Origin: Burkholderia sp. HI2500
GTDB taxonomy: Bacteria > Pseudomonadota > Gammaproteobacteria > Burkholderiales > Burkholderiaceae
Length of the DNA stretch: 64,000 nt
Assembly (NCBI RefSeq): GCF_002223055.1
Contig: NZ_NKFL01000006.1
Span: 1,054,001-1,118,000, forward strand
Direction of reading: 5' to 3'
The notes beneath the pieces were generated by a model. It was not told the DNA's origin and did no database searches. It worked only from the letters and a program-made list of their open reading frames with translations. Position numbers and translations under genes: made by a program. Numbering within the stretch: the first letter of the stretch is position 1; every line of letters starts with the position of its first letter. This document shows, piece after piece, positions 1 to 12,991 of this stretch.

Positions 1-84
1 CGCGGTCCGGCCGCGTGGCCGGTTCCTGCGGATGCGGAACGAATGAAGCGGCCACGGAGAGGCGCGACGGCCGTTGCCATCGCC

Positions 85-199
85 AATCTCCCGGGCTTTT
101 GTCCCGCCGTGTAGCGCGTGCGCGTCCGGTCTCGCGATCGGACGCACCCGCGCCGGGCTGCTCTCGGACCAGACGTTCGATGAACCGGAACCCTAGCAC
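85..199 (-). promoter_or_regulatory. guanidine-I (ykkC) riboswitch, minus strand
   Basis: Read on the minus strand, this stretch has the ykkC hallmarks in order: ctagggttccgg at 196-185, ctggtccgagag near 170-159, then acacggcgggac and aaaagcccgggag near 112-88. The same blocks occur in the same order in the plus-strand copy at 648-773, with different sequence between them, as expected of a conserved RNA rather than a recent duplication. It faces left, so its regulated gene starts beyond base 1. By family knowledge, ligand binding switches on guanidine detoxification or uptake genes. A likely target is the substrate-binding protein missing from the importer on the right; that is inference. 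Confidence 0.88.
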
Positions 200-647
200 C
201 CCTAAGATGCGACGCCGCCGCACCTCTCGGCGTCATGCCGAGCGAGAAGCGTGCCAACGGCACGCGGCGGGGCGGCTCAGGGGCGGCGCGACCTGCGCTG
301 CAGTTCGATGAAGCGGGCGGAGAAGAGCGCGCTCAGCGCGCGCCGGAGCAGGTCGAGCTTGTTCATGAGGTGTCGCGTATCGAGTGAAGGTGCATGCATC
401 GAGCAATGCCCATGCCATCGCCGGTCGTGTCGTGCAGGCCGGCTCGGCGCGCACTGCGCCGGTGCGGCCGCGCGTTCGCATGGTGCGCGGCACGCCCGCC
501 GCGAGGGCGGCGATCCGCATCCGGTGCGGTGTCCGTCAGCGCGCGCACGCCGGAAAGCCGCGTGGCACGGCGATTCCTCGCACGCTGGCACGCAACTCGC
601 TTATTCCGTGCCCGAGAGGTGCGAAGCAATTTGCATCATCTTCAGGA
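200..647. other. divergent intergenic region between two riboswitches
   Basis: About 450 bases with no convincing gene. Overlapping open frames exist on both strands, but they are arginine-rich, low-complexity products typical of out-of-frame high-GC DNA, without recognisable domains or ribosome binding sites. It must hold the two divergent promoters that feed the flanking guanidine-I riboswitches. I could not place the -35/-10 boxes with confidence. Confidence 0.6.
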
Positions 648-773
648 TCGCTAGGGTTCCGGTCGTGCGGCGTTCGCGCCGCGCGATGGCTGGTCCGAGA
701 GCAATCCGGTCTTGTCTTCTCCTCGCTTCGAGGAAACGGCGAGGCTCCACGGAGGGATAAAAGCCCGGGAGGT
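648..773 (+). promoter_or_regulatory. guanidine-I (ykkC) riboswitch, plus strand
   Basis: Contains the conserved ykkC blocks ctagggttccgg (651-662), ctggtccgagag (689-700), and cacggagggataaaagcccg (748-767). It sits about 57 bases upstream of the first gene of a carboxylase/allophanate hydrolase operon, a classic guanidine-I context. The RNA class is known to sense guanidinium and turn expression on. I did not identify the expression platform: no obvious intrinsic terminator follows, so control may be translational. Confidence 0.93.
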
Positions 774-830: not shown

Positions 831-1586
831 ATGTCGCCGCGCCCCCAAGCCGTCCTTGCCCCGCCGCCACACGTCGTGTGGGAAACGCTCATTCCCGCCG
901 GAACCCATTGGTCCGGCATCCTGCGCCGCGGTCTCGCGCTGCGTGTCGTCGATGTCGACGGCGGTGCGAATCTGTCCGCCGTGTTTCATCGCCAGGAAGA
1001 TCCGCTCGAACGCTACAACATGGCCGACACGCTGAAGGCGCAGCACACCGCGCATCTCACCCGCGGCCATGCGCTGTACACCGACATGGGGCGTGTGATC
1101 GCGTCGATCACGGCCGACACGCTCGGCTGGCACGACCCGCTCGGCGGCGTCGGCGATGCGCGGCTGTTCGCGCACAAGTACGGCACGACGTCTTACCAGG
1201 CCGATCGCAACGCGATGATCCGCAATGGCCGGGACAGCCTCGTGCTCGAACTCGCGAAATACGGGCTGTCGGCGCGCGACCTCGTCGCGAACGTCAATTT
1301 CTTCAGCAAGCTCGACACGCGCGACGACGGCGCGCTCGATTTCGTCGCCGGACATTCGCCGGCCGGCAGCACCGTCGACCTGCGCTTCGAGATGAACACG
1401 CTGGCGGCGTTCTCGACCGCGCCGCATCCGCTCGATCCGCACCCCGACTACGCGCCGAAGGCCGTGAAGCTGATCGCGTACCGCGCGTATCCGGCAGACG
1501 GGGCCGCGCCCGAAGACGACCCGTGCCGCCGCGCGTGCGCCGAGAACGTGCGCGGCTTCGCCAACACCGATCGCCTGTTTGCGTAA
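831..1586 (+). CDS. DUF1989 urea carboxylase-associated protein 1 (carboxyguanidine deiminase subunit)
   Basis: A 251-residue DUF1989 protein of the 'urea amidolyase-associated protein 1' type. These proteins work as a pair that, in guanidine-utilising bacteria, deiminates carboxyguanidine to allophanate (carboxyguanidine deiminase, CgdAB), linking the carboxylase to allophanate hydrolase. Visible family segments are [20 protein letters not shown] (residues about 60-80), a [20 protein letters not shown] stretch and [13 protein letters not shown]. The frame is open further upstream, but the ATG at 831 follows GGAG at 822-825 and matches the family N-terminus. The gene is first in the riboswitch operon, with 13 bases to the next gene. 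Which of CgdA or CgdB it is cannot be settled here. Confidence 0.88.
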
Positions 1587-1599
1587 GGAGCGCCGAGCC

Positions 1600-2256
1600 A
1601 TGCCGATCATCGAAAGCCGTCTCGACCCGCGCGATGCCATTCACGACACCACATTGAACGCGGGCGAACCGTGGCTGCACGACCTGAAGCGCGGGCAGGT
1701 CTTCCGCATCCTCGACCTCGAAGGCAACCAGGCCGTCGACACGCTGTTCTACCGGTCCGACGACCCCGAGGAGCGCTACAGCGCGCAGGACACCATCCGC
1801 GCCCAGCGCAACCTGTACCTGAGCGCGGGCAGCGTGCTGCTGTCGAGCCGGGGCAACCCGATGGTGACGATCGTCGCCGATACCTGCGGCCGCCACGACA
1901 CGCTCGGCGGCGCGTGCGCGGCCGAGAGCAACACCGTGCGCTATGCGCTCGACAAGCGGCACATGCACAACTGCCGCGACAGCTTCCTCAACGCGATCAC
2001 GCACTGCACGTGCGGCGCGGGCGCGCGGCTCACCAAGCGCGACCTGGTCGGCAACGTCAACTTCTTCATGAACGTGCCCGTCACGCCGCTCGGCGGGCTG
2101 ACCTTCGAGGACGGCATTTCCGCACCGGGCAAGTACGTCGAGATGCGCGCGGAGATGGACGTCACGGTGCTGATCTCGAACTGCCCGCAGCTCAACAATC
2201 CGTGCAACGGGTACAACCCGACGCCGGTGCGCCTCACGATCTGGGAGGCTGAATGA
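1600..2256 (+). CDS. DUF1989 urea carboxylase-associated protein 2 (carboxyguanidine deiminase subunit)
   Basis: A 218-residue second DUF1989 paralogue, the predicted partner of the preceding gene in carboxyguanidine deiminase. It carries the family blocks [44 protein letters not shown] and [16 protein letters not shown]. The Cys and His residues in the [12 protein letters not shown] region and in HCTCGAG are plausible metal ligands. I chose ATG 1600 because AAGGAG lies at 1585-1590 with a 9-base spacer; an in-frame TTG at 1579 lacks such a site. It is followed by about 150 bases of palindromic DNA before the carboxylase gene. Confidence 0.88.
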
Positions 2257-2391: not shown

Positions 2392-2407
2392 CCCGGCGGG
2401 AGGCAAC

Positions 2408-5997
<3,590 letters not shown>

Positions 5998-6001
<4 letters not shown>

Positions 6002-8944: not shown

Positions 8945-8989
8945 CGCCCGTTGACGCCCACCCATCGACCGATTTCCGCGGAGACCATC

Positions 8990-9898
8990 ATGCAGAACCC
9001 GCAAGCCGTTCCCGATTACCTGATGCAGTCCGACGCGGTGCGCGAGCGCTTCGCGCGCCTGAAAACCCGCGACGTGATACTCGACGTGCGTCATGTCGGC
9101 AAGCGTTTCGCGACACCGCAGGGCGAGTGCACCGCACTTGACGACATCAGTTTCCGTACCTACCGGCGCGAATTCGTGTGCGTGATCGGCCCGTCCGGCT
9201 GCGGCAAGTCGACGCTGATCCGCATCCTGGCCGGGCTCGACGCACAGACGAGCGGCGAGGTGCTGCTCGACGGCAAGCCCGTGCAGGGGCCGGGCGCCGA
9301 TCGCGGGATGGTGTTCCAGGGCTATACGCTGTTTCCGTGGCTCACCGTGAAGAAGAACGTGATGTTCGGACTCCGGATGAACGGAAGCAGCAGCGGCCAG
9401 GCCGAGCGCGAAGCGCTGCAGTGGCTCGATCTGGTCGGGCTGACGCGTTTCGCGGATGTCTATCCGCACCAGTTGTCGGGCGGGATGAAGCAGCGCGTGG
9501 CGATTGCCCGCGCGCTCGCGAACCGGCCGCGCATCCTGCTGATGGACGAGCCGTTCGGCGCGCTCGACGCGCAGACGCGGGCGCGGATGCAGACGCACCT
9601 GCTCGACATCTGGCGCAACATCGACGTGACGATCCTGTTCATCACGCACGATCTCGACGAGGCGATCTTTCTGGCAGACCGGATTCTCGTGCTGAAGGCG
9701 AACCCGGGGGCGGTGCAGGAACTGATCGAGGTGCCCGTGCCACGGCCGCGCGACTATGCGCAGGTCAATACGCCCGAGTTCATCGCGACGAAGGCGCGGC
9801 TCGAGGCGCTGATCCATCCGAAGGAGGCGGTGGCCATCGACGACGGCGTGAGGCCGCACATGATCCGCATGACGGATGTGTCGGACAACGTCGAGTAA
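8990..9898 (+). CDS. ABC transporter ATP-binding protein (putative guanidine/urea import)
   Basis: A 302-residue ATPase of the nitrate/taurine type. Visible are Walker [11 protein letters not shown]-loop [11 protein letters not shown], signature [14 protein letters not shown], Walker [13 protein letters not shown] and the switch histidine in FITHDLDEA. The first 35 residues ([21 protein letters not shown]) precede the core and resemble the extension of the group associated with urea carboxylase. ATG 8990 follows a GGAGA site; a further upstream ATG at 8951 has no good site. Last gene of the guanidine operon; no clear terminator follows. Confidence 0.9.
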
Positions 9899-10685: not shown

Positions 10686-11681
10686 TCATCGCGATTCCGC
10701 CGCAGGCCGAAAGCGATCCCGATACGCTCCCGGGCTCAGTCCGACCTTCTCCTTGAACAGTCGGCAGAACGAGCTCGTGTCGCTATACCCGACCTGGGCC
10801 GTGATCCGCTCGAGGCTGAGATCGCCCGCCTCCAGCAAAGCGCGCGCGGCTTCGATGCGCAGGCTCTGCAAATACCGCAATGGAGACTGATTCAGCGTGG
10901 CCTTGAAGCGGCGGATGATCGTGCGCTCGCTCACGCCGAGGTCCTGCGCCATCGCCGACATCTTCACGTCCTTCGTCATGTGCCTCTGCAGCCAATGCTG
11001 CGCGCGGTGAACCAGCGAATCGCCATGCGTCTTCTCCGTCAGCAACGGGAGATACGGCAATTGCTTCGTCTGGCTGACGTCGATCAGCATCGTCTTGGCG
11101 CACTGCGCGGCAATCACCGCCCCGGAGAAACGCTCGATGACACGGATGGTCTGCAGCAGGTAGGACGCTGACGCGCCCGCACAGATCAGCCGGTCCGCTT
11201 CGGTGACGACTGGTTCCAGCTGAAGGTCGACCCGGGGAAACCGGCTGCGAAACGCGTCTGCCAGCCACCACGTGGTCGTCGCGGGCCGTCCGTCCAGAAG
11301 GCCGGTGTTGGCCAGCACGAACGTGCCGGTGCAGTTTGCCGCCAGGTAGGCGCCGGCGTGCCATTGCGAAACCAGCCAGTCGCATGCGGCGGATTGTCGT
11401 GCCAGCAATTGGTCGAACGCCTTGCCGCTCGCATAGTGCGCACTGGGAATGAAGACCACGTCGAATTGCTCGTGCGGCCGGATCGGCTCCGTGTTCAGCT
11501 GTAGCCCGTTGCTTGCCATGACGGGCGCCCCGGTCGGAGAGACGAACCGCCACTCGAACTGCGCATTGCCGTCGCCTCGCTGTCGCCGCACATGCGCGTT
11601 CGCAATCTGAAGGATGTCGGCGAACCCGCCCAGGCTGGACGCGTAGCAATCGTCGTACGCAAGGATGGCGGCGCGGGGCAT
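10686..11681 (-). CDS. GlxA family transcriptional regulator (PfpI-AraC)
   Basis: A 331-residue regulator. The N-terminal DJ-1/PfpI-like domain (about 1-190) starts MPRAAILAYDDCYASSLGGF and has the elbow AANCTGTFVLANTGLLDG with a cysteine at the nucleophile position. The C-terminal AraC/XylS pair of helix-turn-helix motifs (about 225-325) includes MSAMAQDLGVSERTIIRRFK and ITAQVGYSDTSSFCRLFKEKVGLSPGAYR. GlxA-type proteins bind DNA through the C-terminal domain; the PfpI-like part is thought to sense a small ligand. It is divergent from the nitronate monooxygenase gene 335 bases away, a plausible target. Confidence 0.87.
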   Translation of the reverse strand: MPRAAILAYDDCYASSLGGFADILQIANAHVRRQRGDGNAQFEWRFVSPTGAPVMASNGLQLNTEPIRPHEQFDVVFIPSAHYASGKAFDQLLARQSAACDWLVSQWHAGAYLAANCTGTFVLANTGLLDGRPATTTWWLADAFRSRFPRVDLQLEPVVTEADRLICAGASASYLLQTIRVIERFSGAVIAAQCAKTMLIDVSQTKQLPYLPLLTEKTHGDSLVHRAQHWLQRHMTKDVKMSAMAQDLGVSERTIIRRFKATLNQSPLRYLQSLRIEAARALLEAGDLSLERITAQVGYSDTSSFCRLFKEKVGLSPGAYRDRFRPAAESR

Positions 11682-12016: not shown

Positions 12017-12991
12017 ATGAAAACCAGGATCACCGAACTCTTCGGCATCGACTATCCGATCATCCAGGGCGGCATGCATCACGTCGGGTACGCGGAGCTG
12101 GCGGCGGCCGTCTCCAACGCCGGCGGCCTCGGCATCATTACCGGCCTGACCCAGCGGTCGCCGGCGGATCTGGCTGCCGAAATCCGGCGCTGCCGCGAGA
12201 TGACCGACAAGCCGTTCGGCGTGAACCTCACCTTCCTGCCGACAGTCACGTCCCCCGACTATCCCGGCTATATCCGGGCGATCGTCGAAGGCGGCGTCAA
12301 GATCGTCGAAACGGCCGGCAACAACCCGCAGCCCTACCTGCCCGCGCTCAAGGACGCGCATGTCAAGGTGATCCACAAGTGCACGTCGGTTCGCCATGCG
12401 CTCAAGGCCGAGGCCATTGGCTGCGATGCGGTGAGCGTCGATGGATTCGAATGCGGTGGCCATCCGGGCGAGGACGACATTCCGAACTTCATCCTGCTGC
12501 CGCGCGCTGCCGACGAGCTCAGGATTCCGTTCGTGGCCTCCGGCGGCATGGCGGACGGGCGCTCGCTGGTGGCGGCACTTTCGCTGGGCGCGGACGGCAT
12601 CAACATGGGGACGCGCTTCATCGCGACCCGCGAGGCGCCGGTGCACGAGAACGTGAAGCAGGCGCTGGTCGCGGCGACCGAACTGGACACGCGCCTGGTC
12701 ATGCGTCCGTTGCGCAATACCGAACGCGTGCTGCGCAATGCCGCGGTCGATCGCATCCTCGAAAAGGAACGCACGCTCGGCGCCGATATCCGGTTCGACG
12801 ATATCGTCGAAGAGGTCGCCGGCGTGTATCCGCGCATCATGAAGGAGGGCGCGCTCGACGCGGGCGCCTGGTCGTGCGGCCTGGTCGTCGGCTTGATCCG
12901 CGATATCCCGACCGTGAAGGAACTCGTCGAGCGCATCGTGAGCGAGGCGACGGAGATCATCCGCAGTCGGCTGGCACATATCGCGGTTTGA
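12017..12991 (+). CDS. nitronate monooxygenase (2-nitropropane dioxygenase family)
   Basis: A 324-residue FMN-dependent TIM-barrel enzyme that oxidatively denitrifies alkyl nitronates. Family landmarks include ITELFGIDYPIIQGGMHHVGYAELAAAVSNAGGLGIITG at the N-terminus, the phosphate-binding VASGGMADGRSLVAALSLGADGINMGTRF near residues 175-205, and a central DGFECGGHPGE block with the histidine usually placed near the flavin. Full length for the family. Regulation by the divergent GlxA-type gene is possible but unproven. Confidence 0.88.
   Translation: MKTRITELFGIDYPIIQGGMHHVGYAELAAAVSNAGGLGIITGLTQRSPADLAAEIRRCREMTDKPFGVNLTFLPTVTSPDYPGYIRAIVEGGVKIVETAGNNPQPYLPALKDAHVKVIHKCTSVRHALKAEAIGCDAVSVDGFECGGHPGEDDIPNFILLPRAADELRIPFVASGGMADGRSLVAALSLGADGINMGTRFIATREAPVHENVKQALVAATELDTRLVMRPLRNTERVLRNAAVDRILEKERTLGADIRFDDIVEEVAGVYPRIMKEGALDAGAWSCGLVVGLIRDIPTVKELVERIVSEATEIIRSRLAHIAV

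What the first reader, a model, noticed from the sequence alone, without database searches (positions are those of the whole stretch)
85..199. Second, divergent guanidine-I riboswitch facing out of the window
Two ykkC-type RNAs lie about 450 bases apart, pointing in opposite directions. Conserved blocks are present in both, while the variable loops differ, so both are probably functional. One ligand would then co-induce a metabolic operon to the right and an unseen transcript to the left.
Basis: partly seen in the sequence, partly recalled or inferred. Interest (0 to 1): 0.78.

Follow-up and report, generated by a model that had tools for sequence, protein, structure and literature searches.

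The report
Nitrogen-gated twin guanidine riboswitches with microprotein
In a Burkholderia genome two back-to-back RNA sensors of the guanidine-binding type stand in front of genes predicted to import and break down guanidine, each behind a promoter motif of the kind used when nitrogen is short, so the cell would likely switch these genes on only when it both lacks nitrogen and meets guanidine; a tiny conserved gene between them, probably driven the same way, has no known function.

Summary
Confirmed: window 86-207 (minus) is a guanidine-I riboswitch (78.2 bits, cut-off 63), divergent to and 432 nt from the one at 640-773 (74.2 bits). The unseen left gene encodes an ABC substrate-binding protein; the permease, ATPase and guanidine-degrading enzymes lie to the right. 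All 32 genus genomes with the riboswitch (65 searched) have exactly this pair. New here: both aptamers follow, at fixed spacing, a sigma54 -24/-12 motif (at least 10/12 in 64 of 64 genus sites, 28 of 30 family loci, 21 of 29 class loci; 1.4% of shuffles); 0 of 9 guanidine-II exporter loci do. A published B. cenocepacia ntrC RNA-seq, which calls them urea genes, already shows that the likely orthologous binding-protein and carboxylase genes need NtrC. Between the aptamers a third sigma54 motif precedes a conserved 29-codon ORF, an unnamed microprotein family; its 30 strong hits in 299 family genomes all lie beside a guanidine-I riboswitch. Best reading: a nitrogen AND guanidine gate on import and breakdown. 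Ligand response, terminator action, orthology of the published genes and the microprotein's function are untested.

The parts
86..207 (-). Guanidine-I riboswitch aptamer of the substrate-binding-protein transcript (the finding)
   Evidence: RF00442, 78.2 bits, full model, above gathering 63; present in 32 of 32 genus genomes that have the family
56..92 (-). Terminator-like hairpin that begins in the aptamer 3' GGGAG; U-poor tail
   Evidence: RNAfold of the same 60 nt in 34 genomes; such a hairpin is the MFE in 33 of 34 (L009 pairs otherwise)
1..85 (-). 5' leader between aptamer and the binding-protein gene, whose ATG lies outside the window (gene G000:C6:1053948 down to 1052926)
   Evidence: protein SsuA/TauA-like, Pfam NMT1 53.9 bits
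206..224 (-). Conserved 5' leader hairpin before the aptamer
   Evidence: weak: sorted by a pattern that contains the stem ends
241..256 (-). Sigma54 -24/-12 motif TGGCACGCTTCTCGCT for the binding-protein transcript
   Evidence: 11/12; starts 49 nt before the aptamer in 34 of 34 tight-pair genomes
277..366 (-). Small ORF, 29 codons plus stop, MNKLDLLRRALSALFSARFIELQRRSRRP
   Evidence: 29 codons from the conserved ATG in 31 of 32 genus genomes (41 in L005; some have further in-frame starts upstream); pN/pS 0.32 against 0.57-2.1 in the five other frames; wider family
402..417 (-). Third sigma54 -24/-12 motif TGGCATGGGCATTGCT, starting 51 nt before the small ORF's ATG
   Evidence: 11 (21 genomes) or 12 (11 genomes) of 12 in 32 of 32 genus genomes
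451..465 (.). NtrC-like dyad GCAC-N7-GTGC (8/8)
   Evidence: best dyad 8/8 in 24 and 7/8 in 10 of 34 genomes; shuffles 2.9% and 40.6%; same 8/8 dyad before one of the two PII genes, L211
472..486 (.). Second dyad-like site, right half TGGTGC conserved
   Evidence: alignment of 34 genomes; 6/8 alone is not significant
494..508 (.). Third dyad GCCC-N7-GGGC, 22 bp further
   Evidence: alignment; 6/8 alone is not significant
586..601 (+). Sigma54 -24/-12 motif TGGCACGCAACTCGCT for the metabolic operon
   Evidence: 11/12; starts 54 nt before the aptamer in 34 of 34 tight-pair genomes
618..637 (+). Conserved 5' leader hairpin GGUGCGAA-GCAA-UUUGCAUC
   Evidence: weak, as above
640..773 (+). Guanidine-I riboswitch aptamer of the metabolic operon
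   Evidence: RF00442, 74.2 bits
767..798 (+). Terminator-like hairpin that begins in the aptamer 3' GGGAG, followed by ACGCCTTTTG
   Evidence: MFE in 34 of 34 genomes
831..1586 (+). UAAP1 gene (carboxyguanidine deiminase subunit, by pathway)
   Evidence: TIGR03425 336.6 bits, cut-off 205.95
1600..2256 (+). UAAP2 gene (carboxyguanidine deiminase subunit, by pathway)
   Evidence: TIGR03424 340.3 bits, cut-off 284.7
2405..6001 (+). Guanidine carboxylase (model name: urea carboxylase)
   Evidence: TIGR02712 1829.9 bits; Asp702 aligns with K. lactis Asn1330, the published guanidine-type residue
5998..7905 (+). Allophanate hydrolase
   Evidence: TIGR02713 746.8 bits
7970..8944 (+). ABC permease, BPD_transp_1
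8987..9898 (+). ABC ATPase

Best explanation
Window 86-207 (minus strand) is a second guanidine-I riboswitch that heads the divergently transcribed gene for an ABC substrate-binding protein, and it and its partner at 640-773, each placed behind a sigma54-type promoter motif, are predicted to form a nitrogen-AND-guanidine gate that would turn on import and breakdown of guanidine together. Shown by sequence: the two aptamers, the three sigma54 motifs, the split gene set (binding protein left; permease, ATPase, UAAP1/2, guanidine-type carboxylase, allophanate hydrolase right), and a conserved 29-codon ORF with its own sigma54 motif. Supported by published data on likely orthologues in B. cenocepacia H111: transcription of the binding-protein and carboxylase genes needs NtrC under nitrogen limitation. 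Inferred: phosphorylated NtrC on the dyads at 451-508 activates both divergent promoters; each transcript then runs into a terminator hairpin that overlaps the aptamer's 3' end and is passed only when guanidine is bound; the exporter, which has a guanidine-II switch and no sigma54 motif, would need guanidine only. The small ORF would be a third, nitrogen-controlled output that acts on this pathway; its action is unknown.
For: Both aptamers above gathering score; only copies in the genome. 32 of 65 genus genomes have the family and all 32 have the divergent pair. Gene calls: binding protein, UAAP1/2, carboxylase, hydrolase, permease, ATPase. Carboxylase Asp at K. lactis position 1330, the published separator of guanidine from urea carboxylases. 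Sigma54 motif at least 10/12: genus 64 of 64 sites, family loci 28 of 30, class loci 21 of 29 (19 of them 48-82 nt before the aptamer), dinucleotide shuffles 69 of 4920. Fixed spacing -54 and -49 in 34 of 34 while flanking bases vary. Exporter control: 9 of 9 guanidine-II loci before a SugE-type SMR gene score only 7-8. Terminator-like hairpins, plus side 34 of 34, minus side 33 of 34. Dyad 8/8 in 24 of 34 against 2.9% of shuffles, also before one PII gene of this genome. PMC5491218 Table 1 (passages read): I35_7283 and I35_7285 have zero reads in the ntrC mutant, I35_7286 log2 -6.0; 95% of the top 150 genes also sigma54-regulated.
Against: The H111 medium as described holds no guanidine, yet the wild type expressed these genes well enough to show a log2 loss of 6, so the guanidine gate may be leaky or endogenous guanidine may suffice. 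That I35_7283-7286 are the orthologues is read from descriptions and order, not aligned here. The minus-strand hairpin has no clean U-tract. 8 of 29 class loci score below 10 for sigma54 though they too seem to head assimilation genes, and in 2 of the 21 that pass the motif lies only 21-25 nt before the aptamer, too close to fit. 3 of 21 non-exporter guanidine-II loci also reach 10. In the wide Paraburkholderia-type loci checked, the binding-protein side mostly shows at best 6/8 dyads. A 7/8 dyad is no evidence by itself (40.6% of shuffles), and the genome's second PII gene shows neither motif in the 900 nt scanned. Genus genomes are close relatives and not independent. 26 of 71 named loci with a related binding protein show no guanidine-I aptamer by the motif pattern.
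Confidence: 0.8

Rival explanations
1. The minus-strand copy is a decayed duplicate of the plus-strand riboswitch with no function.
For: Its variable stems differ from the plus copy and its terminator tail is U-poor.
Against: It scores higher than the plus copy (78.2 against 74.2), keeps its promoter motif in 32 of 32 genus genomes and its downstream hairpin as MFE in 31 of 32, persists where the two copies are about 3 kb apart (16 of 71 named loci), and the likely orthologue of its gene needs NtrC in B. cenocepacia.
Confidence: 0.04
2. Nitrogen control alone matters; the riboswitches are weak modulators and the locus is in effect a constitutive part of the NtrC regulon.
For: Clear expression and NtrC dependence without added guanidine in H111.
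Against: Both aptamers are kept in 32 of 32 genus genomes that have the locus and the 3' hairpins in 34 of 34 and 33 of 34 tight-pair genomes.
Confidence: 0.12
3. The locus serves urea, as annotated, and the riboswitch ligand is incidental.
For: Model names say urea carboxylase and urea amidolyase associated, and PMC5491218 treats the likely orthologues so.
Against: Asp at the K. lactis 1330 position is the published guanidine-type residue; RF00442 aptamers on both sides; H111 has a separate urease and urea-transport set, I35_0765-0775.
Confidence: 0.04
4. The 29-codon ORF is not a protein gene but part of a sigma54-driven leader RNA feeding the minus riboswitch.
For: Its promoter motif points at the binding-protein riboswitch, which begins about 70 nt past the ORF's stop codon.
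Against: pN/pS 0.32 in frame, fixed length and an RF[IV]ELQ core; in the wide loci it stays beside the metabolic riboswitch while the binding-protein gene is about 3 kb away, with other genes between in the one such locus read, L064.
Confidence: 0.15

Closest known systems
Guanidine-I (ykkC subtype 1) riboswitch, RF00442
   Same: Both RNAs match the full model above the gathering score and head guanidine import and breakdown genes.
   Different: Two copies back to back on divergent transcripts of one pathway, each behind a sigma54 motif; the text of the 2025 review PMC12186494 holds neither 'sigma' nor 'divergent' (word search).
Guanidine carboxylase operons with two switches (Gd-I then Gd-II) of Raoultella, Klebsiella and Vreelandella
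   Same: Two guanidine sensors cover import and degradation genes.
   Different: There the two are of different classes and lie in one colinear operon; here both are class I and divergent.
NtrC/sigma54 regulon of Burkholderia cenocepacia H111 (PMC5491218)
   Same: The likely orthologues I35_7283-7286 are NtrC-dependent.
   Different: That paper calls them urea genes; 'guanidine' and 'riboswitch' occur zero times in its main text.
Guanidinase-type divergent pairs in other class members (L204, L205, L206)
   Same: Guanidine-I aptamers back to back between a binding-protein gene and a degradation gene.
   Different: The degradation gene is an arginase-family guanidinase candidate, not the carboxylase set.

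Membership tests
Guanidine-I riboswitch (RF00442) | Covariance score above gathering, full-length | tested here: met
   78.2 and 74.2 bits, cut-off 63, model 1-107
Guanidine-I riboswitch (RF00442) | Binds guanidinium and switches expression | not testable with these tools
   needs in-line probing or reporter assays
Guanidine-I riboswitch (RF00442) | Expression platform overlapping the aptamer 3' end | tested here: met
   predicted hairpin beginning in GGGAG: plus side 34 of 34, minus side 33 of 34 genomes; its action is untested and the minus side is U-poor
Sigma54 promoter | TGGCAC-N5-TTGC with GG-N10-GC (consensus recalled) | tested here: met
   window sites at 586, 256 and 417, each 11 of 12; controls
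Sigma54 promoter | Mapped transcription start about 12 nt downstream | not testable with these tools
   no 5'-end data; NtrC dependence of likely orthologues from PMC5491218
NtrC enhancer | GCAC-N7-GTGC dyads upstream (form recalled; also seen before one PII gene here) | tested here: inconclusive
   8/8 in 24 of 34 against 2.9% of shuffles; binding not shown; second PII gene lacks it
Guanidine carboxylase | Asp at K. lactis 1330 and 1584 | tested here: met
   1330: Asp702; 1584: the Asp of GLGD in both, counted by hand from the alignment; criterion read as a passage of PMC11410670
TIGR03427 (putative urea ABC substrate-binding protein) | Score over curated cut-off 333.9 | tested here: not met
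   141.2 bits: filed only as SsuA/TauA-like
Tandem riboswitch (two aptamers in one transcript) | Same strand, same leader | tested here: not met
   opposite strands, 432 nt apart
Named protein family for the 29-codon ORF | A Pfam domain or informative source name among relatives | tested here: not met
   41 database proteins with E up to 1, no precomputed Pfam domain; names are 'hypothetical protein', none, or (3 entries) an implausible 'transcription initiation factor IIE alpha subunit'

The most novel reading that the evidence does not exclude
The guanidine assimilation locus of Burkholderiaceae is a three-output, nitrogen-gated island in which one NtrC array between two class-I guanidine switches fires three sigma54 promoters, the third making a so far unrecognised microprotein (core RF[IV]ELQ) that acts on guanidine uptake or assimilation; and sigma54 in front of guanidine-I switches is a general rule for guanidine assimilation, but not export, in this class of bacteria.
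Probability: 0.5. Interest if true: 0.78.

Novelty: new variant of a known kind. Interest (0 to 1): 0.62.

Why it matters
It joins two control layers that the papers read here treat apart: guanidine riboswitches and the nitrogen (NtrC/sigma54) regulon. If right, it explains why carriers of an importer for a denaturing compound do not take it up unless they need nitrogen, while the exporter stays free of that gate. It would also relabel published 'urea' members of the B. cenocepacia NtrC regulon as guanidine genes, and offers a small conserved protein whose role in guanidine use can be tested directly.

Tried and rejected
Considered an unrelated gene on the left: rejected, it is an ABC binding protein. 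Considered that the sigma54 matches are chance in GC-rich DNA: in the window alone three matches against 1.04 expected is weak (9 of 100 shuffles reach it), and the whole-genome pattern gives 10, these three included, against 3 for the reversed pattern, so the claim rests on position and conservation. I had expected the sigma54-poor class loci to be exporters: not so, the 8 below 10 also seem to head assimilation genes. Those gene readings are by eye from translations; for L148, L150 and L173 the ORF that the script picked looks like a wrong frame. Consensus folding of all leaders together failed because the two leader subtypes misalign; split by subtype they fold as 6- to 8-bp hairpins, but the sorting pattern contains the stem ends, so this is weak. 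UAAP1 was first scanned one base out of frame (window 830, and as a tblastn query) and gave no family; corrected to 831; the orientation calls rest on the binding-protein and UAAP2 queries. The carboxylase motif count over relatives returned nothing because the pattern was wrong; I report only the window residue. Dyads of 6/8 and 7/8 are not significant. Structure prediction was not tried.

Literature: word searches for guanidine + riboswitch + sigma-54 (1 paper), + NtrC (2 papers), + nitrogen starvation + urea carboxylase (none), and riboswitch + sigma54 + divergent (35 papers, 20 listed). From titles and term counts none concerns this; none of those was opened. No paper but PMC5491218 names these H111/J2315 loci. 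Papers seen as passages or sections: PMC12186494 (passages, outline, one section), PMC12508155 (passages, one section), PMC11410670, PMC8390497, PMC5491218, PMC5748707 and PMC5979394 (passages). Sinn 2021, Schneider 2020 and Lardi 2015 are not held, so the absence holds for the held library only.

Rows dropped: one of 43 small-ORF hits (L111, E 0.44) was left out; the 42 rows hold four loci twice (L064/L107, L065/L109, L066/L105, L067/L096), so 38 distinct loci. In one search L005 was left out of pN/pS because its ORF has another length, and the start was set at the conserved ATG. In one search the class set is 29 of the 37 non-own matches and the family set is the 30 new loci fetched. In one search 10 of the 71 named loci were scanned with Rfam; the other positions come from the motif pattern. 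In one search, 55 of 299 genomes match at E up to 0.1; I count the 30 with E up to 1.8e-7. In one search L190 has only 67 nt upstream, and the aptamer of L200 is below the RF01068 cut-off.

Full report
What is there. Rfam's guanidine-I model matches 207-86 on the minus strand (78.2 bits) and 640-773 on the plus strand (74.2 bits), both over the full model and above the gathering score of 63. They are the only two matches in the assembly. The window lies at G000:C6:1054001-1118000, so the sequence left of base 1 could be read. The first gene to the left has its ATG 137 nt after the aptamer, on the minus strand, with 52 bases between it and window base 1. It encodes a 340-residue SsuA/TauA-like ABC substrate-binding protein (NMT1 53.9 bits; best NCBIfam TIGR03427 at 141 bits, below its cut-off of 334).

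The right side carries UAAP1 (831-1586), UAAP2, a urea-carboxylase-type enzyme, allophanate hydrolase, an ABC permease and an ABC ATPase. The carboxylase has Asp702 where the K. lactis enzyme has Asn1330. PMC11410670 (passages read) uses Asp at that position, with Asp at 1584, to tell guanidine from urea carboxylases. So the transporter is probably split: binding protein left, membrane and ATPase parts right, one class-I switch on each. That the left binding protein serves the right-hand permease is inferred from position and shared control.

How conserved it is. Of 65 genus genomes 32 have RF00442, and each of the 32 has exactly two matches, divergent, 431-595 nt apart. Two Trinickia genomes have the pair 363 nt apart. 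Among 71 named loci with a related binding protein, a motif pattern finds a divergent pair in 39 (23 less than 600 nt apart, 16 about 3 kb apart), one aptamer in 6 and none in 26, the last mostly with binding proteins 54-70% identical or on short contigs; for the 10 of the 71 scanned, Rfam agrees. The 16 wide ones are mostly Paraburkholderia. In the one read in full, L064, a 2OG-Fe(II) oxygenase, a xylose-isomerase-like barrel protein and a 122-residue protein lie between. In the family 77 of 299 genomes have RF00442. In more distant class members three further divergent pairs stand between a binding-protein gene and an arginase-family guanidinase candidate, so the back-to-back layout is not limited to this lineage.

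The promoter layer. Both aptamers follow a sigma54 -24/-12 motif at fixed spacing, 54 nt (metabolic side) and 49 nt (binding-protein side), in 34 of 34 tight-pair genomes, while the bases next to the motif vary. Scored against TGGCACGN4TTGCW (consensus recalled), at least 10 of 12 is reached by 64 of 64 genus sites, 28 of 30 family loci and 21 of 29 class loci, against 69 of 4920 shuffles. In 19 of those 21 the motif starts 48-82 nt before the aptamer; in two (L149, L159) it starts 21-25 nt before and is too close to fit. As a contrast, all 30 guanidine-II matches of the class sample were examined: the 9 that precede a SugE-type SMR exporter (best NCBIfam model SugE in 9 of 9, over its cut-off in 6) score 7 or 8, including the window genome's own copy at C5:63701; of the other 21, three reach 10 or more. 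By my reading of translations most class guanidine-I loci precede binding-protein genes, the others UAAP1, a permease, guanidinase candidates or an APC-type permease.

The enhancer. Between the promoters lie three dyads at 451, 472 and 494, spaced 21-22 bp. The first, GCAC-N7-GTGC, is 8/8. The best dyad is 8/8 in 24 of 34 genomes and 7/8 in the other 10; shuffles reach 8/8 in 2.9% and 7/8 in 40.6%. The same 8/8 dyad with a sigma54 motif precedes one PII gene of this genome; the other PII gene shows neither in the stretch scanned. The NtrC form of the dyad is recalled, not from a call. In the wide loci checked the metabolic side keeps 7/8 dyads in most, the binding-protein side mostly not.

Published data fit. 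PMC5491218 (passages read) compares wild type and ntrC mutant of B. cenocepacia H111 under nitrogen limitation. I35_7283 ('urea carboxylase-related ABC transporter, periplasmic protein') and I35_7285 ('urea carboxylase-related aminomethyltransferase') have zero reads in the mutant and I35_7286 (urea carboxylase) falls by log2 6.0; the text says 95% of the top 150 genes are also sigma54-regulated. That these are the orthologues is my inference from names and order. The paper's main text does not mention guanidine or riboswitches. The same data are also a caution: the genes are expressed without added guanidine.

The RNA layer. Both aptamers run into a stable hairpin that starts in their 3' GGGAG, as MFE in 34 of 34 genomes on the plus and 33 of 34 on the minus side; on the plus side ACGCCTTTTG follows, on the minus side the tail is U-poor. 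A guanidine-stabilised aptamer would compete with that hairpin, as a terminator mechanism is presumed for class I in Vreelandella. A 6- to 8-bp leader hairpin lies between each promoter and aptamer.

The small gene. On the minus strand 366-277 is a 29-codon ORF with a third sigma54 motif starting 51 nt before its ATG. The motif scores 11 or 12 in 32 of 32 genus genomes. From the conserved ATG the ORF is 29 codons in 31 of 32 (41 in L005), and pN/pS is 0.32 against 0.57-2.1 in the five other frames. tblastn in the 65 genus genomes finds it in the same 32 that have the riboswitch pair, plus one chance hit at E 0.69. Among 117 fetched loci 42 rows (38 distinct loci) carry a homologue with the core RF[IV]ELQ (one RFMELQ), each with an ATG and a sigma54 score of at least 9 (38 of 42 rows at least 10) 50-55 nt upstream, and each divergent from a guanidine-I aptamer at 272-397 nt; these loci were fetched for the aptamer or the binding protein, so this set is biased. 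The unbiased test is a profile search of 299 family genomes: 30 strong hits (E at most 1.8e-7), all in genomes with RF00442 and all beside it; weaker hits up to E 0.1 in further genomes are short or poor and not counted. So 30 of the 77 genomes with RF00442 have it. The protein database holds 41 relatives of 29-70 residues with no Pfam domain and no useful name; their neighbourhoods were not examined. It is basic (net +6) and not strongly amphipathic by hydrophobic moment (0.18-0.22). Its function is open. Two Trinickia genomes with the pair lack it, so it is not needed for the switches.

Mechanism. Low nitrogen would let NtrC on the central dyads activate the divergent sigma54 promoters; each transcript would continue only if guanidine holds the aptamer. 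Import then raises guanidine further, so the binding-protein switch would add positive feedback. Shown: parts, positions, conservation; from the literature, NtrC dependence of likely orthologues. Inferred: ligand response, termination, the shared enhancer, the microprotein's role.

Verdict. As riboswitches these are ordinary members of a known class; the sigma54 coupling, which I did not find described in the held literature, and the linked microprotein family are the new parts.

Noticed in passing
L064 5597-8089: Between the two widely spaced switches lie a DIOX_N/2OG-Fe(II) oxygenase, an AP_endonuc_2 (xylose-isomerase-like) barrel protein and a 122-residue protein without a Pfam family; possibly enzymes that release guanidine from guanidino compounds, like MgdH/MgdL in Vreelandella (PMC12508155). 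Other wide loci were not read for genes.
   Followed up: partly
G000:C5:63701-63745 (L174): The same genome has a guanidine-II riboswitch before a SugE-type SMR exporter, without a sigma54 motif (best 7 of 12).
   Followed up: yes
L034-L063: A second guanidine-I locus type in the family (26 of these 30 loci) heads a different binding protein (about 28% identical), mostly with the sigma54 motif at -63 to -69 and another leader sequence.
   Followed up: partly
L003 15480-16742 (minus): A porin gene (Porin_4, 159.7 bits) follows the binding-protein gene on the same strand after about 180 nt; it may be co-transcribed.
   Followed up: no
window 10686-11681 (minus): An AraC-type regulator with a DJ-1/PfpI domain (FtrA/GbdR-like) converges on the end of the metabolic operon.
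   Followed up: no
window 12017-12991 (plus): Nitronate monooxygenase family gene (Pfam NMO 206.7 bits) near the operon, another nitrogen-related enzyme.
   Followed up: no
L070 4519-14586: Another family member has a colinear order: sigma54 motif, guanidine-I aptamer, binding protein, permease, ATPase, UAAP pair, carboxylase, hydrolase; the split divergent form may derive from such an operon.
   Followed up: partly
window 206-224 and 618-637: Conserved 6- to 8-bp hairpin between promoter and aptamer on both sides, with subtype-specific sequence.
   Followed up: partly
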